This document shows positions 2,895 through 50,366 of a DNA stretch of 64,000 nucleotides, piece by piece. The notes beneath the pieces were generated by a model. That model saw nothing but the letters and a program-made list of their open reading frames with translations. It was not told where the DNA came from and ran no database searches. The number at the start of each line of letters is the position of its first letter. Position 1 is the first letter of the stretch. This stretch comes from Luteitalea pratensis (GTDB lineage Bacteria; Acidobacteriota; Vicinamibacteria; Vicinamibacterales; Vicinamibacteraceae), in assembly GCF_001618865.1 (NCBI RefSeq), contig NZ_CP015136.1, positions 3,569,001 to 3,633,000 on the forward strand. The letters are read 5' to 3'. The position numbers and the translations under genes were made by a program.

Positions 2895-4118
2895 ATGCCC
2901 AACCTACGGGTCGTGCTGGCACTGGCCGGTCTGACGGCCGGCGCGTCGTTGCTCGCGCAGCCGACGACTCCCTCGTCGACGCTGCCGCGGTTGGTGATCG
3001 AGGCCGGCGAGACGGCACGCACGCACACGCTGATCACGGTGCAACTGCCGGCGACGGTACGCGGCGCCGATCTGCAACTGCGCCACGAGCAGACCGGCGA
3101 GACCGTGACGCTGCAGATCGGGCCCTATCGCGAGGCCTGGGCCGTGGTGCCGTCGATTCCGGCGGACAAGGCCGTGCGCTACCGGATCGAGCCCTCGCTG
3201 AAGGGCGCCGCGCCGGACCGGGTGACGGCGACGCGCGAGGTCTCGCGCGTGCGGGTCGCCGTGGACGGCAAGCCCGCCTTCACCTACGTCGGTGAGCCGC
3301 TGCGCCTGCCGTCGGGCATCGAGGACGTCTACGAGCGCGGCGGCTACATCCACCCGGTGCTGACGCCGTCAGGGCGACGGGTGACCGAGGACTATCCGCC
3401 CAATCACAAGCATCACCATGGCATCTGGGCGGCCTGGACGAGCACCAGATTCGCGGGCCGCACGCCGGACTTCTGGAACATGGGCGACCGGAAGGGCAAG
3501 GTCGAATTCGAACGCCTCGCGCGAGCGTGGTCGGGCCCTGTTACCGCCGGCTTCGAGGCCCGCCATCGCTACATGGACCTGCTCGCGCCCACTCCGATGA
3601 CGGTCCTGCTCGAGGACTGGCAGGTGATTGCCTACGCGCCGGTTGCCGCGGCTCGTCCGGCGTACGTGTTCGACCTCGCGATCACCCAGGCACTGACGGG
3701 CACGAGCCCGCTGGAGTTGCCGACCTATCGCTATGGTGGTGTCGGCATGCGCGGCCGAATCGAGTGGGACGGCAAGGACAAGACGTTCTTCCTCACGTCC
3801 ACTGGCCGTGGCCGCCTGTCGGGCCACGGCACACGGGCCACGTGGGTGCACATGAGCGGTGACGTCGATGGACAGCGGGCCGGCATCGCGATGCTTTCGC
3901 ACCCCGACAACGTGCAGTCGCCCCAACCCATGCGCATCCATCCCACCGAGCCCTTCTTCAATTTCGCGCCGCAGCAGGCAGGCCCGTTGACGATCCGGCC
4001 AGGTGAGGTGTTCCGGATGCGCTATCGCTTCGTGGTGATGGATGGCCCGCCGGATGCGACCCTGCTCGACGCGATGTGGCAGGACTACGCGTTGCCCGTG
4101 CGCGCAAGGGTCGAATAG
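2895..4118 (+). CDS. secreted DUF6807 (PmoA-type) family protein
   Basis: A 407-residue protein with an N-terminal signal peptide (about 1-22, cleavage near LLAQP). The first 130 residues look like a beta-sandwich. The rest matches the DUF6807/'methane oxygenase PmoA' family, whose hallmark here is the histidine-rich NHKHHHGIW at residues 170-178, followed by WNMGDRKGKVEFE. Despite the family name this is not particulate methane monooxygenase. Such proteins are common in Planctomycetes and Acidobacteria next to sugar-catabolism genes, and the histidine cluster suggests a metal- or carbohydrate-binding site. The specific activity is unknown. It stands alone, with an inverted pair of REP-like palindromes just downstream. 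Confidence 0.8.
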   Translation: MPNLRVVLALAGLTAGASLLAQPTTPSSTLPRLVIEAGETARTHTLITVQLPATVRGADLQLRHEQTGETVTLQIGPYREAWAVVPSIPADKAVRYRIEPSLKGAAPDRVTATREVSRVRVAVDGKPAFTYVGEPLRLPSGIEDVYERGGYIHPVLTPSGRRVTEDYPPNHKHHHGIWAAWTSTRFAGRTPDFWNMGDRKGKVEFERLARAWSGPVTAGFEARHRYMDLLAPTPMTVLLEDWQVIAYAPVAAARPAYVFDLAITQALTGTSPLELPTYRYGGVGMRGRIEWDGKDKTFFLTSTGRGRLSGHGTRATWVHMSGDVDGQRAGIAMLSHPDNVQSPQPMRIHPTEPFFNFAPQQAGPLTIRPGEVFRMRYRFVVMDGPPDATLLDAMWQDYALPVRARVE

Positions 4119-4140
4119 CGGTCACCGCGCTTTCACGAAG

Positions 4141-4165
4141 GTAGGGACGCCTCTCCGAGGCGTCC
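4141..4165 (+). repeat. REP-like palindrome, type A (GTAG head)
   Basis: GTAG followed by the arms GGACGCCTC and GAGGCGTCC around a TCC loop. The arm then repeats as a 15-base unit three times (4153-4197, CTCCGAGGCGTCCAT with single changes). It pairs with an inverted copy at 4237-4261. Confidence 0.8.
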
Positions 4166-4236
4166 ATCTCCGAAGCGTCCATCTCCGAGGCGTCTATCTC
4201 CGACATGTCGCAACCGGAATCGTTGGCCGAGCCGAT

Positions 4237-4261
4237 GGACCGCTCGGAGAGCGGTCCCTAC
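4237..4261 (-). repeat. REP-like palindrome, type A, inverted partner
   Basis: Read on the minus strand: GTAG, arm GGACCGCTC, loop TCC, arm GAGCGGTCC. Compared with 4141-4165 two base pairs in the stem differ, and both differences are compensated on the other arm. A half copy ending in CCCTACC follows at about 4265-4280. Confidence 0.8.
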
Positions 4262-4297
4262 CTTCCCAGCGGTCCCTACCTTACCCATGCGCATGCC

Positions 4298-5410
4298 TTA
4301 CCCATGCGCATGCTTGCGGACGATGGCCTGATACGCGTCGCGCTGGCGTTCGATCGACGCCATCAGCGCCATCTGCGCGCGGGCGCGATCCAGGTTGTGG
4401 CCGGGGTGATGAATCCGGTAGTACGTATCGCCCTGCACGTGATCGCCGAGGAAGCGAATCGCCTGTTCGAAGGCGAGCAGTTGCCCCGAAAACGCGAGCC
4501 AGTCGATCTCGGCCGGCTGCAGGAAGGTACCGGCGGCCGAGAGGTAGCCGCGCACGAGCGCCTCGAACATCTCCGGACGCGACGCGACCTTCGAGACATC
4601 GCGCTCGTCCTCTGCCGCGGCATTGGTCGCGGTGCGGACCATGTCGCCGAAATCGATCGGCGCCAGCCCCGCCATCGTCGTGTCGAGATCGACGACGCAC
4701 AGCGCCTCGCCCGTCGCGACGTCCATCATCACGTTGTTGATCTTCGTGTCGTTGTGGGTCACGCGTTCGGGGACGGCGCCAGCCTCTGCAGCCGCAATGA
4801 GCCGATCGGCGTCAGCTTCGTGCGCGAACGCGAGGGCGATCAGATCCCGGCATGCGTGTGCGCGATTGCACGGGTCCGCATCGACCGCTGCAGCAAACGC
4901 GTCGAACCGCCTGCGGGTGTGATGGAAGTCCGGGATCGTGTCGTGCAGCCGATCGCCCGGCAGGTCGGCCAGCAGTGCCTGGAACTGGCCAAAGGCGCGT
5001 GCGGCCGCTTCCGCCTGCGCCGGCGTCTCGACGATGTCGTAGGTGCGCGTGTGCTCGATGAAGAGGTAGGTTCGCCAGACGGCGCCCTCGTCATCGATCA
5101 CGTAGGGCCGGCCGTCGCGGGCGGGAACGAGCGTGAGGGCACGGCGCGAGGCGTCGGGGAGGCCCGCGAGGCGAGTCGCGGCGTGCGAGAGCACACGCGA
5201 CACGTTGTCCATCAGGCGCAACGGCTCACGGAACACGTGCCCGTTGATCCGCTGGTGCACGTAGCGGACACGCGTGCCGGCCTGGTCGTACGTCGCGGCG
5301 TACGTCTCGTTGATGTGCCCGCTGCCGTGCGGCGCGGCCTCGACCAGGGTGCCGTGCACCTGGAAGCAGGCACCAAGGGACCGCAGATCGCGGGCACGTC
5401 CGTCGTTCAT
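4298..5410 (-). CDS. phosphotransferase-family sugar kinase, NahK-like
   Basis: A 370-residue protein of the aminoglycoside phosphotransferase/choline-kinase fold. The Brenner motif THNDTKINN is at about residues 218-226 and the metal-binding DLD of VVDLDTTMAG at 241-243. The N-terminal stretch HGSGHINETY is the nucleotide loop, and the overall pattern resembles N-acetylhexosamine 1-kinase. The ATG at 5410 follows the nucleotidyltransferase stop (5416) by five bases, so the two are co-transcribed. Together they would turn a free (amino)sugar into a sugar-1-phosphate and then an NDP-sugar. The substrate is inferred from the pairing and not proved. Longer in-frame starts upstream overlap the nucleotidyltransferase and are unlikely. 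Confidence 0.82.
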   Translation of the reverse strand: MNDGRARDLRSLGACFQVHGTLVEAAPHGSGHINETYAATYDQAGTRVRYVHQRINGHVFREPLRLMDNVSRVLSHAATRLAGLPDASRRALTLVPARDGRPYVIDDEGAVWRTYLFIEHTRTYDIVETPAQAEAAARAFGQFQALLADLPGDRLHDTIPDFHHTRRRFDAFAAAVDADPCNRAHACRDLIALAFAHEADADRLIAAAEAGAVPERVTHNDTKINNVMMDVATGEALCVVDLDTTMAGLAPIDFGDMVRTATNAAAEDERDVSKVASRPEMFEALVRGYLSAAGTFLQPAEIDWLAFSGQLLAFEQAIRFLGDHVQGDTYYRIHHPGHNLDRARAQMALMASIERQRDAYQAIVRKHAHG

Positions 5411-8455: not shown

Positions 8456-9175
8456 TCAGGAGCAATCGGCGAACTTGTATCCGACGCCCCAGGCAGTGAG
8501 GATCAACTCCGGCTTCCTCGGATCGCGTTCGAGCTTCTTGCGCAACCGGCTGACCACCGTATCGACCGTACGTTCGGTGTCGGTGTCGTTGGTCCAGGCC
8601 GTTTCCAGCAGGCGGGTGCGGCTGAAGACAATGCCGCGGTGGCTGGCGAGGTGGTGCAACAGGTCGAATTCCTGGCGGGTCAGTTCGACCGGCTCTCCCT
8701 GGATGCGCACTTCGCGTTGCGCCAGGTCCATCGTCACGCCCGGCGCCAGCACCGCGGGTCCCTCGTCAGGAGGGGCGATAGTCTCGCCGCGTCCGTGGCG
8801 GCGCGTCACCGCGAGCACCCGGGCCTGCAACTCGCGGACGCCGAATGGCTTCGTGAGGTAGTCGTCGGCGCCGCTCTCGAGGCCGATGACGGTATCGGCC
8901 TCGCTGTCGCGCGCAGTGAGCATCAGGATCGGCGTCTCGATGTTCGCGCCCGCGATGCGCAGCGCCCGGCAGACCGACACACCGTCGAGCCCGGGCAGCA
9001 TCACGTCGAGCACGAGCAGGTCGAAGCGGGTCCGGCGCGCAAGCTCCAGGGCGGAGCGGCCGTTGGCTTCTTCCTCGACGTCGAAGCCCGCAAGGCCGAG
9101 GTGCAACTGCAGCAATTCGCGAATGGCGACATCGTCTTCCACCACCAGCGCACGTCGAGCGTCGACCTCCGTCAC
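8456..9175 (-). CDS. OmpR-family response regulator
   Basis: A 239-residue DNA-binding response regulator. The receiver domain (about 8-120) has acidic residues VVEDD, the phosphoacceptor Asp57 in LLVLDVMLPG, Thr87 of LTARD and Lys109 of YLTKPF. The C-terminal half is a winged helix (VELTRQEFDLLHHLASHRG, TVDTVVSRLRKKLE). The start is GTG. It is divergent from the histidine kinase at 9256, with an 80-base shared promoter region, an unusual layout for a pair normally in one operon. The partner kinase is inferred from adjacency. Confidence 0.93.
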   Translation of the reverse strand: MTEVDARRALVVEDDVAIRELLQLHLGLAGFDVEEEANGRSALELARRTRFDLLVLDVMLPGLDGVSVCRALRIAGANIETPILMLTARDSEADTVIGLESGADDYLTKPFGVRELQARVLAVTRRHGRGETIAPPDEGPAVLAPGVTMDLAQREVRIQGEPVELTRQEFDLLHHLASHRGIVFSRTRLLETAWTNDTDTERTVDTVVSRLRKKLERDPRKPELILTAWGVGYKFADCS

Positions 9176-9255
9176 GTCACTTGGTACGGCCTGACGGCCG
9201 TGAATGTTTACGCCGAGTCACACTTCTTCCACATATTCGTGATGAGCTTAGCGTG

Positions 9256-10692
9256 ATGGTCCAGCAGCCGGCGGGGATCGCGTGGTGGCGCAGTCTGTAT
9301 CTGCGCATCGGCGTCAGCTTCGTGCTGCTCGTGATCGCCATCGCCCTCATCCAGGGGCTGCTCTTCACCGCCAGGATGCAGCGCGACGCACGCGATCCGC
9401 GCCGCTCGCCGCATGCCGTGGCCATGGAGGCCGCACTGGCCGCCGCCGCGGCCATGGAGCGAAGTGAACCCTTCGACCTGCGCCGCATGCAGCAGGCCCG
9501 GTTCCCCGACTGGGCGCTGATGGACATCGTGATGAGTGACGGGACCGTGCAGTCGACCTCCTCCGGTTCGCCGCTGCCGCCGGCGGTGCTCGACTACGCG
9601 CGCCAGATGCTGTCGCCCACACCGCCCGAGGAACGTGTCGCAACGGCCGTCGACCGGCCGTTGGTGACCGCACCCATCCAGGTCGACGGACAGTTGAAGG
9701 GCGTGGTGCTGTTGCGGTTCCCCAGGCGCAGCCTGATCAGCGAGGTGGCGCGCTTCCTCTCGATCAGCGGCCTGCTGGTGCTCGCCGCGAGCACCGCCCT
9801 TGCCTCGTGGATCATCTTCACCCCGGCTCGGCGCAAGCTGTCGGCGCTCGAGGCCGCGGCGGAACGGATGCGGGAGGGCGATCTCAAGGCGCGGGCGCCC
9901 GAAGACGGCGGCGACGAAATCGCGCTGGTCGCTCGTGCCTTCAACCGCATGGGTGACCAACTCGTGGAGCGCGACGAGACGCTGCGCACCGTGGATCTCA
10001 TGCGCCGGCAGATGCTCGCCGACGTCTCGCACGAGCTCAAGACGCCACTCACCGCCATGCGTGGCTTCATCGAGACGCTGCAGATGCCTCAGATCGCGGC
10101 CGACGAGGAGCGTCGCACCCGGTACTTCGCGACACTCGAGCGCGAGACACGCCGTCTGGAGCGTATCGTGGCCGACCTGCTCGACGTCGCACGGCTCGAG
10201 AACAACGCCGCCGACTTCGAGCTGCGCGTGTTCTCGACGCGCCGCCTGTTCGAGCAGGTGGCGCGCCGTAACGAGCGCGTCGCCGTGGACAACGGTGTGG
10301 CGTTCGACATCCAGGTTGCAGACGAAGCTGACCAGGTGTACGCCGATCCCCATCGCCTCGAGCAGGCCGTCGACAACCTGGTGGCCAATGCGCTCCGCTA
10401 CACCCCAAGCGGCGGCCGCGTGTCGATGCGGGCGGACATGGCTGGCGAGACGGTCGCGCTGAAGGTCGTCGACACCGGTCCCGGCATCCCGGCCGAACAC
10501 ATCGGGCATGTATTCGATCGGTTCTACAAGGCGGATCCGTCGCGTGCCGCCACCCGCGAGGGCAGTGGCCTGGGCCTCTCGATCGTGCGTGCCATTGTCG
10601 AACGCCACGGCGGCACGGTAGGAGTGACCAGCGAGCCGGGCAACACCGAGTTCACGCTGCTGCTGCCAGCAGAGGGCACGACGGAGGCCTGA
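9256..10692 (+). CDS. two-component sensor histidine kinase
   Basis: A 478-residue membrane kinase. TM1 is at about 14-37, a roughly 125-residue periplasmic sensor follows, TM2 is at about 166-190, and then HAMP. The HisKA phosphoacceptor is His259 in ADVSHELKTPLTAMRG. The ATPase domain has the N box DNLVANALRYTP (about 373-384), DTGPGIP and GSGLGLSIVRAI. An in-frame extension upstream to 9181 would overlap the promoter region and places extra residues before TM1, so the ATG at 9256 is preferred. It should phosphorylate the divergently encoded OmpR-type regulator. The stimulus is unknown. Confidence 0.92.
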   Translation: MVQQPAGIAWWRSLYLRIGVSFVLLVIAIALIQGLLFTARMQRDARDPRRSPHAVAMEAALAAAAAMERSEPFDLRRMQQARFPDWALMDIVMSDGTVQSTSSGSPLPPAVLDYARQMLSPTPPEERVATAVDRPLVTAPIQVDGQLKGVVLLRFPRRSLISEVARFLSISGLLVLAASTALASWIIFTPARRKLSALEAAAERMREGDLKARAPEDGGDEIALVARAFNRMGDQLVERDETLRTVDLMRRQMLADVSHELKTPLTAMRGFIETLQMPQIAADEERRTRYFATLERETRRLERIVADLLDVARLENNAADFELRVFSTRRLFEQVARRNERVAVDNGVAFDIQVADEADQVYADPHRLEQAVDNLVANALRYTPSGGRVSMRADMAGETVALKVVDTGPGIPAEHIGHVFDRFYKADPSRAATREGSGLGLSIVRAIVERHGGTVGVTSEPGNTEFTLLLPAEGTTEA

Positions 10693-46023: not shown

Positions 46024-47400
46024 ATGGTCGTGATTCTGTCCACGTACGAGCTGGGGCGTCCGGCATTCGGCCCGGCCCTCGCGGCAGCGTGGACGCGAGA
46101 CGCGGGCCTCGAGGTCCGCCTCATCGACCTGTCGCGCGAGCCACTCCCGCCAGGCCTCGTCGCGGCCGCATCGTCGTTCGCGGTGCACGTGCCCATGCAT
46201 GCGGCGACGCGCCTGGCCGGGCCGGTCCTGTCGCGTCTGCGTGACGAGCGCCCCGAGACCACCCGCATCGCCTTCGGGCTGTACGCGCCGCTGAACGCCG
46301 ACTGGTTGCGGCGACACGGTGCGACGCATGTGCTGGGCGTCGAAGCCGAGGCGACACTGGCGACCCTGGCGGCGGGTAAGGGTGGTGACGAGCGCGATTT
46401 GCGCGGCACGCAAGTACCCCGGCTCGCGTTCCCCGTGCCGGACCGCTCGACGCAGCCACCGCTTTCGGCCTACGCACGGCTCAACATCGGCGGTGAACGT
46501 CGCCTCGCGGGTTACACCGAGGCCTCGCGCGGCTGCCTGCATACCTGCACGCACTGCCCGATCGTGCCGATCTACCAGGGCAGCATGCGGGTCGTGCCGG
46601 TCGAGACCGTGCTCGCCGACGTTGCGCAGCAGGTCGCGGCGGGCGCCCAGCACATCACCTTCGGCGATCCGGACTTCTTCAACGGCCCGACACATGCGCG
46701 CCGCGTGATCGAGGGCCTCACGTCGAGGCATCCCGACGTCAGCTACGACGTGACCATCAAGGTCGAACATCTGCTCGCGCATCGCGATCTCCTCAATCGG
46801 CTCGCGGGCACGCGCTGCGCCTTCGTCACGTCCGCCGTCGAGGCGTTCGACGACGAGGTGCTCGCACATCTCCAGAAGGGTCACACGGCCGATGACGCGC
46901 GCCGTGCCGTTGCGGCCTGCCGGGACCGTGGCCTCGCGCTGGTGCCGACGTTTGTCGCGTTCACGCCGTGGACGACGGTCACGGGCCACGTGGCATTTCT
47001 CGAAGCGATTCGCGCGCTCGATCTCGTGGACGTCGTTGCGCCGGTCCAGTTGGCGTTGCGGCTGCTGCTGCCATCCGGATCGGCGCTGCTGGCCGACCCG
47101 GACGTGCAGCGTGTGGCCTTTGTCTTCGACCGGGACGCCCTCGCGTATCCATGGACACACGCAGATCCGGCGGTCGATCGCCTGCAGGAGCAGTCGATGG
47201 CGTGGCTCGGTCAGCAGGGCCGCCGGGCGTCACGAGCCACGGCGTATGCCGGGTTGCGCCGCATGGCCGATGAGGCCGCCGGCACGGCCTTCGATGCGTT
47301 CACACCTGGTGACGCGTTGGTGCGGGCTGCCGTGCCCTATCTCGACGAGCCCTGGTACTGTTGAGCGGAGCCCCTCGGAGAGCCGGGAGCTCTCGTGTAG
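46024..47400 (+). CDS. radical SAM selenoprotein with C-terminal Cys-Sec-Ala-Glu-Pro tail
   Basis: 458 residues if TGA at 47362-47364 is read as selenocysteine; 446 if read as stop. The N-terminal 130 residues form a Rossmann-like domain similar in shape to B12-binding domains but without the DxHxxG motif. The 4Fe-4S site is C171-x3-C175-x2-C178 in SRGCLHTCTHCPI. After Cys446 the codons TGA GCG GAG CCC give Sec447-Ala-Glu-Pro. The frame then runs LGEPGALV to TAG, which touches the ATG of the ATP-grasp gene. A stem-loop at 47378-47394 has the size and spacing of a bacterial SECIS. This matches the CUAEP/CCAEP-tail radical SAM family as I recall it. The reaction is unknown. An ATG at 46024 is preferred over 45967. 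Confidence 0.85.
47362..47394 (+). promoter_or_regulatory. UGA recoding site with SECIS-like stem-loop
   Basis: TGA at 47362 is followed 13 bases later by the arms GAGAGC (47378-47383) and GCTCTC (47389-47394) enclosing a five-base loop CGGGA. A G in the second loop position and a distance of about 20 bases from the TGA fit the loose bacterial SECIS rules. The loop and start of the 3' arm also hold GGGAG (47385-47389), the best ribosome-binding site for the gene at 47401. Confidence 0.75.
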
Positions 47401-48672
47401 ATGTCCACCGTCCTGCTGTGCACGACCACCCTCGGCTACCAGGCCCGGGCGTTCGACGCCGCGGCGCGTCGCGCCGGCGTGACCTTGCGGATCGTGTCCG
47501 ACCGCTGCGACCACCTGGACGACCCCTGGGGCGACAGCGCGATTCCGGCGCGGTTTGACAGGAATGCCGCGCACGTGACGCCAGTGCTGGCGGCGCTCGA
47601 GGGAATGCCGGTGGACGGCGTCCTCGCCGTCGGCGATCGACCCGCCTGGCTGGCGGCGCACATCGCGCAGGCGCGTGGCCTGCCGTGGCATGCGCCCGAG
47701 GCGGTCGCCGTCGCCACGAACAAGCTGATGGCCCGTGGCCGCATGCTGGCCGCCGGCCTCCCGGTGCCGTGGTTCGTGAGTCTGCCGGTCCATGGCGACG
47801 AGGACCTCGATCGCCTGACGCGCGTGCGATTTCCGTGCGTGGTCAAGCCGATCGGCTTGTCGGCGAGTCGTGGCGTGATGCGCGTCGACTCGCTGGCGGG
47901 GTTGCTCGCCGCACGTGAGCGCCTGGCGGCCCTGCTTGCGCGTGTCGACGTCCGCGCCAGCGCTTCAGCCGACGATGACGTCCTGATCGTGGAGGGCTTC
48001 GTGCCGGGGCAGGAGTTCGCCCTCGACGGCGTGCTCGAGCAGGGGGCGCTTCGTGTATTCGCACTGTTCGAGAAACCCGATCCCCTCGACGGGCCGTTCT
48101 TCGAGGAGACCATCTACGTGACGCCGGCCCGGCTCGCGCCGGCGCGTCAGCACCTGGTTGCCGGCCACATCGCGCGGGCCGCGCTGGCCCTCGGCCTGCA
48201 CCATGGCCCGATTCACGCCGAGTGCCGGGTCGACGGCGACGACATCGTGGTGCTCGAAGTCGCGCCGCGCCCGATTGGCGGCCTCTGCGCGCGATCGATC
48301 CCGGTGGTGGCGCCCGACGGCACACGCTGCGGCCTCGAAGATGCGCTGCTGGCGCACGCCCTCGGTCAGTCCCTCGACCGATACGGCCACCAGGCCCTCG
48401 CGAGCGGGGTGCTGATGGTGCCGGTGCCCGAGACCGGACGCCTGCGGTCAGTCGAAGGCGTGGATGCCGTGCGCGAGATGCCGTCGGTGACCGGCGTGGA
48501 GATCACCGCGAAATCCGGGTCGATGCTCGAGACGCTTCCCGAGGGAGGCACCTATCCCGGCTTCGTCTTCGCGGAGGGGGCGCAACCGGGCGACGTGATC
48601 GACGCGCTGCGCGAAGCGTCGCGGCGGTTGCGGCTGGTGATGGACCGGACGCTGCCTATTTCGCGGGGGTAG
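47401..48672 (+). CDS. ATP-grasp family ligase, partner of the radical SAM selenoprotein
   Basis: A 423-residue protein with the carboxylate-amine-ligase ATP-grasp layout. An N-terminal Rossmann part (TVLLCTTTLGYQ) is followed by VVKPIGLSASRGVMRV (ATP-binding lysine, about 142-157), VEGFVPGQEFALDGVL, and IHAECRVDGDDIVVLEVAPRPIGGL with the metal-binding Glu/Asn-equivalent region. It should join a carboxylate to an amine or thiol using ATP; substrates are unknown. The ATG directly follows the upstream TAG with no gap, so translation is likely coupled. The pairing suggests a shared pathway to a modified peptide or small molecule. Its end overlaps the convergent yggX-like gene by 17 bases. Confidence 0.85.
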   Translation: MSTVLLCTTTLGYQARAFDAAARRAGVTLRIVSDRCDHLDDPWGDSAIPARFDRNAAHVTPVLAALEGMPVDGVLAVGDRPAWLAAHIAQARGLPWHAPEAVAVATNKLMARGRMLAAGLPVPWFVSLPVHGDEDLDRLTRVRFPCVVKPIGLSASRGVMRVDSLAGLLAARERLAALLARVDVRASASADDDVLIVEGFVPGQEFALDGVLEQGALRVFALFEKPDPLDGPFFEETIYVTPARLAPARQHLVAGHIARAALALGLHHGPIHAECRVDGDDIVVLEVAPRPIGGLCARSIPVVAPDGTRCGLEDALLAHALGQSLDRYGHQALASGVLMVPVPETGRLRSVEGVDAVREMPSVTGVEITAKSGSMLETLPEGGTYPGFVFAEGAQPGDVIDALREASRRLRLVMDRTLPISRG

Positions 48673-48928
48673 GTGTGTAGCCGGGCGGCAGGGCCGCGCT
48701 CTCGCCGAAGAAGAAGTCCTCCATGTGCTTCGCCACGATATCCTGGGCTTCCTTCTGCCAGGGCATGAGGCGGTACTCGTTGAGGATCATCTTCATCCGC
48801 TCTTCCCACATCGCCCAGGCTTCCTGGGACACGCTATCGTAGATACGCTGGCCAAGTGGTCCCGGCCACGGCGCTTCTTCGAGTCCCGGCAGTTCCTGCC
48901 CCAGCTTCACGCAATGCACCGTCCGCAT
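48656..48928 (-). CDS. Fe(2+)-trafficking protein, YggX-like
   Basis: A 90-residue protein. Conserved YggX positions are visible: the N-terminal Cys in VHCVKLGQE, the PGPLGQRIYDSVSQEAWAMW block and MILNEYRLM, then KHMEDFFFG. YggX supports iron-sulfur cluster maintenance and oxidative-stress resistance in Proteobacteria. The C-terminal 15 residues extend beyond the usual length. The ATG at 48928 gives the family start; a longer upstream frame runs into the divergent transporter. Iron-sulfur support next to a radical SAM gene is suggestive but may be coincidence. Confidence 0.85.
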   Translation of the reverse strand: MRTVHCVKLGQELPGLEEAPWPGPLGQRIYDSVSQEAWAMWEERMKMILNEYRLMPWQKEAQDIVAKHMEDFFFGESAALPPGYTPTPAK

Positions 48929-48953
48929 GGGGCCGATCGTACCAGAGCCTTCG

Positions 48954-50366
48954 ATGTCCTTCTTCGACCGTTTTCGATCCTCGCCTCGCCTGTTGGTGAC
49001 CCTCGGCATCCTCGGCGGCAGCTTTCTCGCCGCCATGGAAGCCACCATCGTCGCGACCGCCATGCCGACCGTCGTCGACCAGTTCGGCGGATTGGCACAC
49101 TACAGCTGGGTGTTCTCCGGCTACATGCTGACGTCGACGGTCACGACGCCGGTGTGGGGCCGCATCGCCGACGTCCACGGGCGGCGTCGACCCTACCTCG
49201 TGGCCATCGGGTTGTTCCTGCTGGGGTCGATGTTGTGCGGCGTTGCCACGTCGATGACGCAGCTCATCGCCTTTCGCGCCCTGCAGGGTGTCGGGGCGGG
49301 CGGCATGCTGCCGCTTGGCATGGTCATCATGGGCGACATGTTCTCGCTCACGGAGCGAGCCCGCGCGCAGGCGCTCTTTGCCGGCGTCTGGGGGATCTCC
49401 TCCATCGCCGGCCCCCTCATCGGCGCGGTGCTCACCGAGAACGCGTCGTGGCGGTGGATCTTCTTCATGAACCTGCCGTTCGGCCTGGCGGCGGCGTTCC
49501 TGGTGGCCCGGTTCCTGGTCGACCGCCTGGGTCACGATCGCGGTGACGTCGACTACATCGGCGCCGGCGTGCTCATGAGCGCGGTCACCGCGCTGATGCT
49601 CGCGCTGAACCAGACCGGCGTGCCCGACGCGTCGCTTTCGCCGACGGTGGTGCGGATGCTCTATGTCTCGGCGGTCGCGCTCGGCGCGCTGTTCGTGCTC
49701 CTCGAACGCCGCACGGCGCATCCGACGCTCCCGCTGTCGCTGCTGGCCAACCGCATGGTGGCGACCACGACCGCGAGCGGCGCGCTGCTGGGGATCGCCA
49801 TCTTCGGAGCGCTGGCCTTCGTTCCCCTGTACGTGCAGGCGGCGCTCGGTCGAACCGCGCGCGAAGCGGGCAGCGTGCTGACGCCCCTGCTGCTTGGCTG
49901 GGTGTCGATGTCGATCGTCACGGGCCGCTTGCTGCCGCGCGTGGGGTTCCGGCCGTTCATCCTCGGCGGACTCAGTTTCGTGTCGGTGGGCTTCCTCGGC
50001 CTGGCCACCGTGCGGCCGGACGGACCGATGTGGAAGCTGCATGTGGACCTCGGCCTGATGGGGATCGGGATGGGGATGACCATGCTGTCGCTGCTGCTGG
50101 CGGTGCAGGCGACGGTCGCGCGCGAGCAACTCGGTGTGGCCACCTCGCTCGGGCAGTTCACGCGCAGCATCGGCGGGGCGATCGGCGTCGCCGTGATGGG
50201 GGCGATGGTGGCCGCGTCGCTGCCGTCGAGCGGTCCGACACCAGCCGCCCTGGCACTGGGGCTCCATCGCGCCTTCGTCACGGGGGCGGTGGTGTCGCTG
50301 GTGGCGCTCTGCTCTGCATTGCTGGTCCCGGGGGGCTTGCCCGAGCAAAAGAAAACGGTCGGGTAA
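48954..50366 (+). CDS. MFS efflux transporter, DHA2/EmrB-like
   Basis: A 470-residue drug:H+ antiporter-type protein with about 14 TM segments. Motif A is GRIADVHGRRRPY (about 65-77). LQGVGAGGMLPLGMVIMGDM is the DHA2 loop and GVWGISSIAGPLIGAVLTENASWRWIFFMNLPFG is motif C plus the WRWIF signature. The exported compound is unknown. There is no adjacent membrane-fusion gene, so it may act alone. The ATG at 48954 is preferred; a GTG-like upstream extension to 48927 overlaps the divergent yggX start. Confidence 0.88.
   Translation: MSFFDRFRSSPRLLVTLGILGGSFLAAMEATIVATAMPTVVDQFGGLAHYSWVFSGYMLTSTVTTPVWGRIADVHGRRRPYLVAIGLFLLGSMLCGVATSMTQLIAFRALQGVGAGGMLPLGMVIMGDMFSLTERARAQALFAGVWGISSIAGPLIGAVLTENASWRWIFFMNLPFGLAAAFLVARFLVDRLGHDRGDVDYIGAGVLMSAVTALMLALNQTGVPDASLSPTVVRMLYVSAVALGALFVLLERRTAHPTLPLSLLANRMVATTTASGALLGIAIFGALAFVPLYVQAALGRTAREAGSVLTPLLLGWVSMSIVTGRLLPRVGFRPFILGGLSFVSVGFLGLATVRPDGPMWKLHVDLGLMGIGMGMTMLSLLLAVQATVAREQLGVATSLGQFTRSIGGAIGVAVMGAMVAASLPSSGPTPAALALGLHRAFVTGAVVSLVALCSALLVPGGLPEQKKTVG

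What the first reader, a model, noticed from the sequence alone, without database searches (positions are those of the whole stretch)
46024..47400. Radical SAM gene whose apparent stop is probably a selenocysteine codon
In the sequence, TGT-TGA-GCG-GAG-CCC reads Cys-Sec-Ala-Glu-Pro at the end of a radical SAM protein, the frame stays open for 11 more codons, and the next stop (TAG) touches the ATG of a co-directional ATP-grasp gene. A stem of six perfect pairs follows at SECIS-like distance. The CUAEP/CCAEP-tail radical SAM family is established in protein-family databases as I recall, but its chemistry is not. Ordinary gene callers would truncate the protein at residue 446 and lose the redox-active tail.
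Basis: partly seen in the sequence, partly recalled or inferred. Interest (0 to 1): 0.85.

Follow-up and report, generated by a model that had tools for sequence, protein, structure and literature searches.

The report
Radical SAM selenoprotein with ligase partner
An apparent stop codon in a soil-bacterium enzyme gene is very probably read as selenocysteine, and the enzyme nearly always travels with a partner of the peptide-bond-forming kind, pointing to an undescribed small-molecule pathway.

Summary
At 46024-47400 a radical SAM gene reads through TGA (47362-47364) as Cys-Sec-Ala-Glu-Pro and ends at a TAG abutting the ATG of an ATP-grasp gene. The protein matches NCBIfam NF040546, CUAEP/CCAEP-tail radical SAM (seleno)protein, at 642.6 bits (cut-off 500), so family and Sec proposal already exist in a database; no held paper names it. 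New here: in 80 relatives the residue is TGA (56) or Cys (24). A 6-bp hairpin after the TGA is kept in Sec forms (at least 5 of 6 pairs in 76 of 90) with compensatory changes and lost in Cys forms (2 of 30). The genome has selA, selB, selD and tRNA-Sec. The ATP-grasp, nearest among solved structures to L-amino acid ligase BL00235, is present in 48 of 48 Acidobacteriota genomes carrying the radical SAM gene and 6 of 249 others. A YggX or NfuA-like gene lies within 1.5 kb of the ligase in 60 of 90 loci. The sister family is ArsL of arsinothricin biosynthesis, but tested arsenic genes are absent nearby. Sec is near certain by computation; the chemistry (unusual amino acid, then dipeptide) is inferred.

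The parts
46024..47400 (+). CUAEP-tail radical SAM selenoprotein gene, 458 residues with Sec447
   Evidence: NF040546 642.6 bits over cut-off 500; read with TGA as U; aligned to homologues over the full length
46534..46557 (+). radical SAM CX3CX2C motif, C171, C175, C178
   Evidence: invariant in 26-row and 62-row alignments; PF04055 45.5 bits over cut-off 29.5
47362..47364 (+). TGA codon 447 read as selenocysteine, next to Cys446
   Evidence: TGA or Cys codon followed by Ala-Glu-Pro in 80 of 80 relatives
47378..47394 (+). bacterial SECIS hairpin: stem 47378-47383 with 47389-47394, loop 47384-47388
   Evidence: six Watson-Crick pairs; stem kept with compensatory changes in 90 Sec sequences, not in 30 Cys sequences
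47401..48672 (+). ATP-grasp gene of L-amino acid ligase type, near-obligate partner
   Evidence: PF13535 103.1 bits and PF18603 60.7 bits, both over cut-off; closest solved relative 3vot, L-amino acid ligase BL00235; co-occurrence 48 of 48
48656..48928 (-). YggX / Fe(2+)-trafficking protein gene, convergent with the ATP-grasp gene and overlapping its end
   Evidence: PF04362 112.6 bits, NF003817 116.9 bits over cut-off 74; the only match in the genome; same neighbour in 50 of 90 ligase loci
48927..50366 (+). DHA2-type MFS efflux transporter, possible exporter; membership in the unit uncertain
   Evidence: PF07690 185.1 bits; TIGR00711 218.9 bits, below its cut-off 230.2; its cluster was found in 6 of 81 loci, the window included

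Best explanation
The TGA is a selenocysteine codon. SelB with tRNA-Sec inserts Sec447 using the hairpin that follows after 13 bases, giving a vicinal Cys446-Sec447 pair in a conserved C-terminal tail (supported by comparison, about 0.97). The enzyme is one half of a two-gene pathway whose other half is the adjacent ATP-grasp of L-amino acid ligase type (supported by co-occurrence, about 0.9). Inferred: the radical SAM enzyme, an ArsL relative on a B12-enzyme-like scaffold, builds an unusual amino acid, with the Cys-Sec tail either holding a soft (thiophilic) substrate atom (about 0.4) or acting as a redox relay (about 0.3); ArsL-like transfer of the 3-amino-3-carboxypropyl group is about 0.25. 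The ligase then joins the product to another amino acid (about 0.6). The recurring YggX or NfuA-like neighbour suggests that the pathway serves, or depends on, iron or Fe-S handling (about 0.4). The confidence given is for the first two sentences on Sec and the pairing.
For: Family: NF040546 642.6 bits against cut-off 500. Residue: 56 TGA, 23 TGC, 1 TGT of 80 relatives, all followed by Ala-Glu-Pro. SECIS: six stem columns paired in 90.7% of cells in 90 Sec sequences and 40% in 30 Cys sequences; slid registers 41-57%; column shuffles at most 77%; 76 of 90 against 2 of 30 sequences with at least 5 of 6 pairs; loop base 23 is G in 89 of 90 Sec sequences. One relative (G263) reads CUSEP-Leu-TAG, and a hairpin can be drawn by eye beyond its stop codon. 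Machinery: selA, selB, selD and tRNA-Sec in the genome; of 50 genomes, the 39 Sec forms include 38 with selA over cut-off and 36 with selB over cut-off, and the 3 genomes with neither gene are Cys forms. Partner: ATP-grasp in 48 of 48 radical SAM genomes and 6 of 249 others, and in 17 of 20 further genomes where it is not next door. Ligase class: 3vot BL00235, E 2.6e-70. Iron/Fe-S neighbour: 60 of 90 ligase loci.
Against: No protein-level evidence of selenium. The hairpin columns were chosen after looking at the same sequences, the sequences are related, and 14 of 90 Sec sequences have fewer than 5 of the 6 pairs. In the window itself the hairpin is not the minimum-energy fold and the region is not significant alone. 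5 of 8 Cys-form genomes have selA and selB, so the association with machinery rests on three genomes on the Cys side (Fisher p 0.0035, not corrected for relatedness). Three Sec-form genomes lack a selB over cut-off (G110, G287, G080; 95%, 75% and 75% complete), and G080 has only a selA fragment. The ligase was not found in 3 of 20 genomes with the radical SAM gene (those of L106, L107, L125; completeness not told). Tested arsenic genes are absent near the family, which argues against an arsenical product. Nothing tested here shows the substrate.
Confidence: 0.9

Rival explanations
1. The TGA is an ordinary stop and the protein ends at Cys446; the downstream AEP stretch is untranslated.
For: Mechanical ORF calling stops there; RefSeq annotates the T. 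roseum relative as ending at the same Cys.
Against: AEP after the codon is invariant in the 26-row and 62-row alignments, which include Cys forms that translate it; the hairpin is kept in TGA forms and not in Cys forms; sel genes are present.
Confidence: 0.02
2. It is an ArsL-type enzyme of an organoarsenical pathway: the Cys-Sec tail binds As(III), the enzyme adds the aminocarboxypropyl group from SAM, and the ATP-grasp makes a peptide of the arsenical amino acid.
For: Second-best family is ArsL/RCCLKC at 238.6 bits; the ArsL tail also has a vicinal Cys pair that MAFFT aligns with Cys446-Sec447; RCCLKC loci of Alicyclobacillus, Priestia and Pantoea also hold an ATP-grasp gene.
Against: Below the ArsL cut-off of 450; no ArsR, ArsB, ArsC, ArsH, ArsN1, ArsQ or aquaporin relative at E 1e-5 in 80 loci (many of them short) and only two weak ArsM-like matches; the ligases of the two systems are only 23-25% identical; the 13-kb stretch around P. 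amygdali arsL shows no ATP-grasp gene.
Confidence: 0.12
3. The Cys-Sec pair is a redox relay, like the C-terminal tail of thioredoxin reductase (recalled), that reduces the enzyme's own substrate, cluster or a cysteine after each turnover.
For: Vicinal Cys-Sec on a short C-terminal tail whose end is of low confidence in the model; Cys can stand in for Sec, with at least 15 changes on the tree.
Against: The invariant Ala-Glu-Pro after the pair and a moderately confident model there (pLDDT near 79 for 441-450) are not what a free swinging arm needs; no reductase was recognised among the 20 neighbour proteins annotated.
Confidence: 0.3
4. YggX or NfuA lies next to the ligase only by shared ancestry or because radical SAM enzymes need clusters, and the pathway has nothing to do with iron.
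For: Most fetched loci are Acidobacteriota (67 of 80), so synteny may be inherited; the radical SAM partner itself needs a 4Fe-4S cluster (family knowledge); 30 of 90 ligase loci show neither gene.
Against: Two different iron/Fe-S proteins take the place in different lineages, among them Methylomirabilota, Latescibacterota, Actinomycetota and Pseudomonadota, and they are beside the ligase also where the radical SAM gene is elsewhere.
Confidence: 0.5

Closest known systems
NCBIfam NF040546, CUAEP/CCAEP-tail radical SAM (seleno)protein (rSAM_CUAEP)
   Same: Nearly full-length match over the curated cut-off; CUAEP tail; Sec or Cys alternative already in the family name
   Different: The family name carries no function, SECIS, partner or pathway; those are added here. 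It is not in the rows of Table 1 of the 2026 inventory PMC13188914 as shown
NF040542 RCCLKC-tail radical SAM, ArsL of arsinothricin biosynthesis
   Same: Sister family, 25-31% identical to the window protein in four examples, same cluster motif, vicinal Cys pair at the C terminus; ATP-grasp gene in three of the four loci fetched
   Different: Below cut-off; CCLKC tail instead of CUAEP; lacks roughly the last 50 residues before the tail; lies among arsenic genes
L-amino acid ligase BL00235 (PDB 3vot) and alanine-anticapsin ligase BacD
   Same: ATP-grasp family aligns over nearly its whole length with BL00235 at 240.5 bits and partly with BacD at 97 bits; LAL_C2 domain
   Different: Substrates unknown; marked out here by its coupling to the radical SAM gene
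Other radical SAM selenoproteins: TIGR04167 and TrsS (NF045646), listed in PMC13188914
   Same: Radical SAM proteins with Sec (table rows seen)
   Different: Other families; Sec motif GxxU for TIGR04167, none given for TrsS; neither is among the 15 family matches
AprD4, MgmA, OxsB, TsrM structures
   Same: Same overall fold: N-terminal Rossmann-like domain plus radical SAM barrel (AprD4 Z 28.1, rmsd 3.5, 404 aligned)
   Different: 14-20% identity in the alignments; other substrates

Membership tests
NF040546 CUAEP/CCAEP-tail radical SAM (seleno)protein | Score over curated cut-off of 500 bits | tested here: met
   642.6 bits, profile positions 1-465 of 468
NF040546 CUAEP/CCAEP-tail radical SAM (seleno)protein | C-terminal C-U/C-A-E-P tail | tested here: met
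   CUAEP at residues 446-450 with TGA read as U
Radical SAM superfamily | CX3CX2C motif and PF04055 over cut-off | tested here: met
   C171, C175, C178 invariant; 45.5 bits over 29.5
Bacterial selenoprotein | In-frame TGA aligned with Cys of homologues | tested here: met
   56 TGA and 24 Cys of 80
Bacterial selenoprotein | SECIS hairpin just downstream of the TGA | tested here: met
   covarying stem kept in Sec forms and not in Cys forms; single-sequence folding and Rfam were negative
Bacterial selenoprotein | selA, selB, selC, selD in the genome | tested here: met
Bacterial selenoprotein | Selenium found in the protein | not testable with these tools
   needs 75Se labelling or mass spectrometry
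NF040542 ArsL, arsinothricin biosynthesis | Score over cut-off of 450 bits | tested here: not met
   238.6 bits; no match over cut-off in the genome
NF040542 ArsL, arsinothricin biosynthesis | RCCLKC tail | tested here: not met
   CUAEP instead
NF040542 ArsL, arsinothricin biosynthesis | Arsenic genes in the neighbourhood | tested here: not met
   0 of 80 loci for ArsR, ArsB, ArsC, ArsH, ArsN1, ArsQ and aquaporin queries at E 1e-5; 2 weak ArsM-like matches
NF040542 ArsL, arsinothricin biosynthesis | Transfer of the aminocarboxypropyl group of SAM | not testable with these tools
   enzyme assay needed
L-amino acid ligase (ATP-grasp partner) | ATP-grasp_4 and LAL_C2 domains over cut-off | tested here: met
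   103.1 over 27 and 60.7 over 29.4 bits
L-amino acid ligase (ATP-grasp partner) | Dipeptide synthesis | not testable with these tools
   enzyme assay needed
Cobalamin-dependent radical SAM | Binding of cobalamin by the N-terminal domain | tested here: inconclusive
   fold resembles OxsB and TsrM, but AprD4 is the best match; no B12 motif test was made

The most novel reading that the evidence does not exclude
The selenoprotein and its ligase are the core of an undescribed, widespread pathway (48 of 297 Acidobacteriota genomes sampled, and five other phyla by record title) that makes a small peptide from a radical-built amino acid. The Cys-Sec tail holds the thiophilic atom on which the radical acts, and the product works in iron or Fe-S cluster handling beside YggX and NfuA.
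Probability: 0.25. Interest if true: 0.88.

Novelty: new member of a known kind. Interest (0 to 1): 0.62.

Why it matters
Radical SAM enzymes with Sec are few (two rows besides this one in the inventory table that I read), and this family is named in a database but absent from those rows. The pairing with an amino acid ligase makes its function directly testable: delete either gene and look for the same missing metabolite. Ordinary annotation can cut off the Sec and everything after it, as in the RefSeq record of T. roseum.

Tried and rejected
Single-sequence folding of the hairpin gave no significance and Rfam gave no SECIS match (only two chance-level matches, E 3.8 and 7); both were superseded by comparison. 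An arsenic pathway was tested through neighbours and largely rejected. The ligases of RCCLKC loci were compared as possible orthologues and rejected, 23-25% identity; a search of plasmids with the window's ligase did not list the three RCCLKC loci fetched. An apparent ligase-radical SAM fusion in L129 was rejected: the joining stretch is a run of N, 4112-4496. The distance from tail to cluster could not be measured, as no model coordinates were in the Python box. The first clustering script printed no clusters and was repeated with changes.

Literature: no held paper has CUAEP or CCAEP, NF040546 or rSAM_CUAEP, or RCCLKC. The 2026 review PMC13188914 was seen by passages and parts 1 and 2 of 3 of its section 7, which hold Table 1; PMC9312934 by passages; PMC8552651 by passages; the rest only as search listings. 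One search gave no paper.

Rows dropped or missing: of 126 tail sequences, 6 identical ones were dropped before the SECIS count; L091 was left out because its contig ends; G188 and G128 have the tail of their main match cut by a contig end (a second G128 piece has one TGA), and G263 was not caught by the motif script and was later read as CUSEP by eye. Gene calls in neighbourhoods are my own simple ORF choice. The 90 ligase loci were not checked for one genome drawn twice.

Full report
What is there. The radical SAM frame at 46024-47400 contains one TGA, codon 447, inside Cys-TGA-Ala-Glu-Pro, then 11 open codons and a TAG that abuts the ATG of an ATP-grasp gene. The protein scores 642.6 bits against NCBIfam NF040546, CUAEP/CCAEP-tail radical SAM (seleno)protein, cut-off 500. 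The next family is ArsL (NF040542) at 238.6 bits, cut-off 450. The window lies in a genome of 7,480,314 bases in one contig. I take it for an acidobacterium from its nearest relatives on the tree; the size reminds me of Luteitalea pratensis, from memory only.

Is the TGA selenocysteine? By record title they are 67 Acidobacteriota, 6 Pseudomonadota, 4 Actinomycetota and one each of Thermomicrobiota, Methylomirabilota and Latescibacterota. All 80 have C-x-A-E-P with x encoded by TGA in 56, TGC in 23 and TGT in 1. On a quick tree of 97 rows rooted on four ArsL-type proteins, Sec and Cys forms need at least 15 changes, about 11 of them forced by well-supported branches, against shuffled means of 22-25. 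The two residues thus replace each other often, as they do in other selenoprotein families (recalled).

SECIS. I placed 120 distinct 48-base stretches, beginning at the TGA or Cys codon, without gaps. A stem of six pairs around a five-base loop is formed in 90.7% of cells in the 90 Sec sequences and 40% in the 30 Cys sequences. Registers slid by 1-3 bases give 41-57% in Sec sequences, and shuffling one side of each column gives at most 77% in 1000 trials. At least five of six pairs are present in 76 of 90 Sec and 2 of 30 Cys sequences. Loop base 23 is G in 89 of 90 Sec sequences, and the commonest loops are AGTTG (26), AGGTT (17) and AGGTG (17). Folding energies relative to mononucleotide shuffles also differ (median z -1.07 and +0.57, Mann-Whitney p 5.9e-12). 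The window has all six pairs, with loop CGGGA, seen in no other of the 90. Sec-form tails after AEP have exactly 8 residues in 45 of 55 and never fewer; Cys-form tails have 8 in 15 of 24, fewer (3-5) in 7 and 22 in 2. G263 reads CUSEP-Leu-TAG, and a hairpin can be drawn by eye just past the stop (not folded). This suggests that the stretch after AEP is held at least partly by the RNA rather than by the protein. Caveats: the columns were chosen on the same data, and the sequences share ancestry.

Machinery. The genome has selA (492.4 bits, cut-off 267.9), selB (326 bits, cut-off 242.25), selD (324.7 bits, cut-off 125) and a tRNA-Sec (65.7 bits, gathering 47; anticodon TCA). The second tRNA match over the gathering score is a tRNA-Ser. 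selD itself carries an in-frame TGA in a UxxK context, probably a second selenoprotein. Among 50 Acidobacteriota genomes with the radical SAM gene or a large piece of it, 39 read as Sec: 38 have selA over cut-off and one a fragment below it; 36 have selB over cut-off. Eight read as Cys: five have both genes over cut-off, three have no selA match and no selB over cut-off. Three tails were not read by the script. Fisher p for selA is 0.0035, uncorrected.

The partner. The ATP-grasp gene follows the radical SAM gene directly on the same strand in 49 of 81 loci (the 80 and the window) and lies elsewhere in the locus in 7 more; 5 loci are too short to tell. In NC10 (L116) and Latescibacterota (L129) it lies upstream. 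In 297 Acidobacteriota genomes the radical SAM gene is over cut-off in 48 and the ligase at E up to 1e-60 in 54. All 48 have both. The six with the ligase alone are G206 and G080, which hold radical SAM fragments, and G017, G057, G226 and G278 (Fisher p 3.6e-49, uncorrected for relatedness). Ligase and radical SAM gene are on the same contig in 34 of the 48. Of 20 further genomes whose radical SAM locus lacks a neighbouring ligase, 17 have it elsewhere; those of L106 (Rhizohabitans), L107 and L125 show none at E 1e-40. The ligase has ATP-grasp_4 and LAL_C2 domains, and its nearest solved relative is L-amino acid ligase BL00235, 3vot, 240.5 bits. The pair is therefore most simply a two-step route: an unusual amino acid, then a peptide bond (inference).

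Iron neighbours. In 90 ligase loci, 50 have an Iron_traffic (YggX) gene and 11 an NfuA-like gene within 1.5 kb, one has both, so 60 of 90 have at least one. The window's YggX is the only one found in its genome. The adjacency is also seen where the ligase lies away from the radical SAM gene, in draft genomes usually on another contig (for example L161-L166, L169, L170, L173, L175-L178), and in five phyla counting Acidobacteriota. The NfuA-like calls rest on two proteins tested, PF01106 over cut-off with TIGR03341 below cut-off, and on a profile built from five members. Eight of the 90 loci end within 700 bases downstream of the ligase.

ArsL. Four RCCLKC proteins align with 25-31% identity to the window protein, the same cluster motif, and a vicinal Cys pair that falls on Cys446-Sec447. 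ArsL is predicted to transfer the aminocarboxypropyl group of SAM to As(III) (PMC8552651, passages). RCCLKC loci of Alicyclobacillus, Priestia and Pantoea also carry an ATP-grasp gene; the stretch around P. amygdali arsL does not (that gene table is incomplete by design). But those ligases are distant, and tested arsenic genes are absent near 80 CUAEP loci apart from two weak ArsM-like matches. So ArsL is a guide to possible chemistry, not the identity. Vicinal CU motifs in the 2026 inventory include a MerB-like lyase and HgcA, which is suggestive of soft-metal chemistry.

Structure. The AlphaFold2 model has mean pLDDT 93.4 and pTM 0.92; the tail block 441-450 averages 79 and 451-458 averages 47. 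The best fold matches are AprD4 (Z 28.1, rmsd 3.5, 404 aligned), MgmA, OxsB, TsrM and MiaB: a Rossmann-like domain plus a radical SAM barrel. I could not measure the distance from tail to cluster.

Verdict. The family itself is already named, so this is a new member of a known kind. The added findings, a SECIS supported by comparison, a near-obligate amino acid ligase partner and iron or Fe-S neighbours, turn an orphan family into a testable pathway.

Noticed in passing
L154:6935-8371 (NC_011961.1, Thermomicrobium roseum): RefSeq protein WP_012643191.1, named CUAEP/CCAEP-tail, ends at the Cys before a TGA that is followed by GCG GAG CCG and a possible hairpin; the Sec tail is cut off in the annotation. 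Sec machinery of that organism was not tested.
   Followed up: partly
L021:1501-2421 (selD of the window's genome): selD carries an in-frame TGA in a UxxK context, probably a second selenoprotein of this genome.
   Followed up: partly
L155, L157, L158 (plasmids of Alicyclobacillus, Priestia, Pantoea): RCCLKC-tail (ArsL-type) loci contain an ATP-grasp gene, which suggests that some arsinothricin-like amino acids are further ligated into peptides.
   Followed up: partly
L146 (G263:C93): Variant tail CUSEP with a TAG stop two codons later; a hairpin can be drawn after the stop codon.
   Followed up: partly
L037:1501-2949 (G295:C65): Radical SAM relative with an additional in-frame TAG about 64 codons before the Sec codon, in a variable region; error, pseudogene or recoding not resolved.
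   Followed up: no
L075 (CALQBJ020000119.1): A record titled Bifidobacterium breve MAG carries a copy that falls among Acidobacteriota on the tree; probably a mislabelled bin.
   Followed up: no
L154:5509-6720 and 8578-9855: A PLP-dependent aminotransferase lies upstream and an MFS transporter downstream of the T. roseum gene, both on the other strand.
   Followed up: no
13 of 81 loci, for example L057:830-1801: A gene cluster whose one tested member is CofD (F420 biosynthesis) recurs on the same strand, median distance about 2.4 kb from the radical SAM gene, upstream in the cases printed.
   Followed up: no
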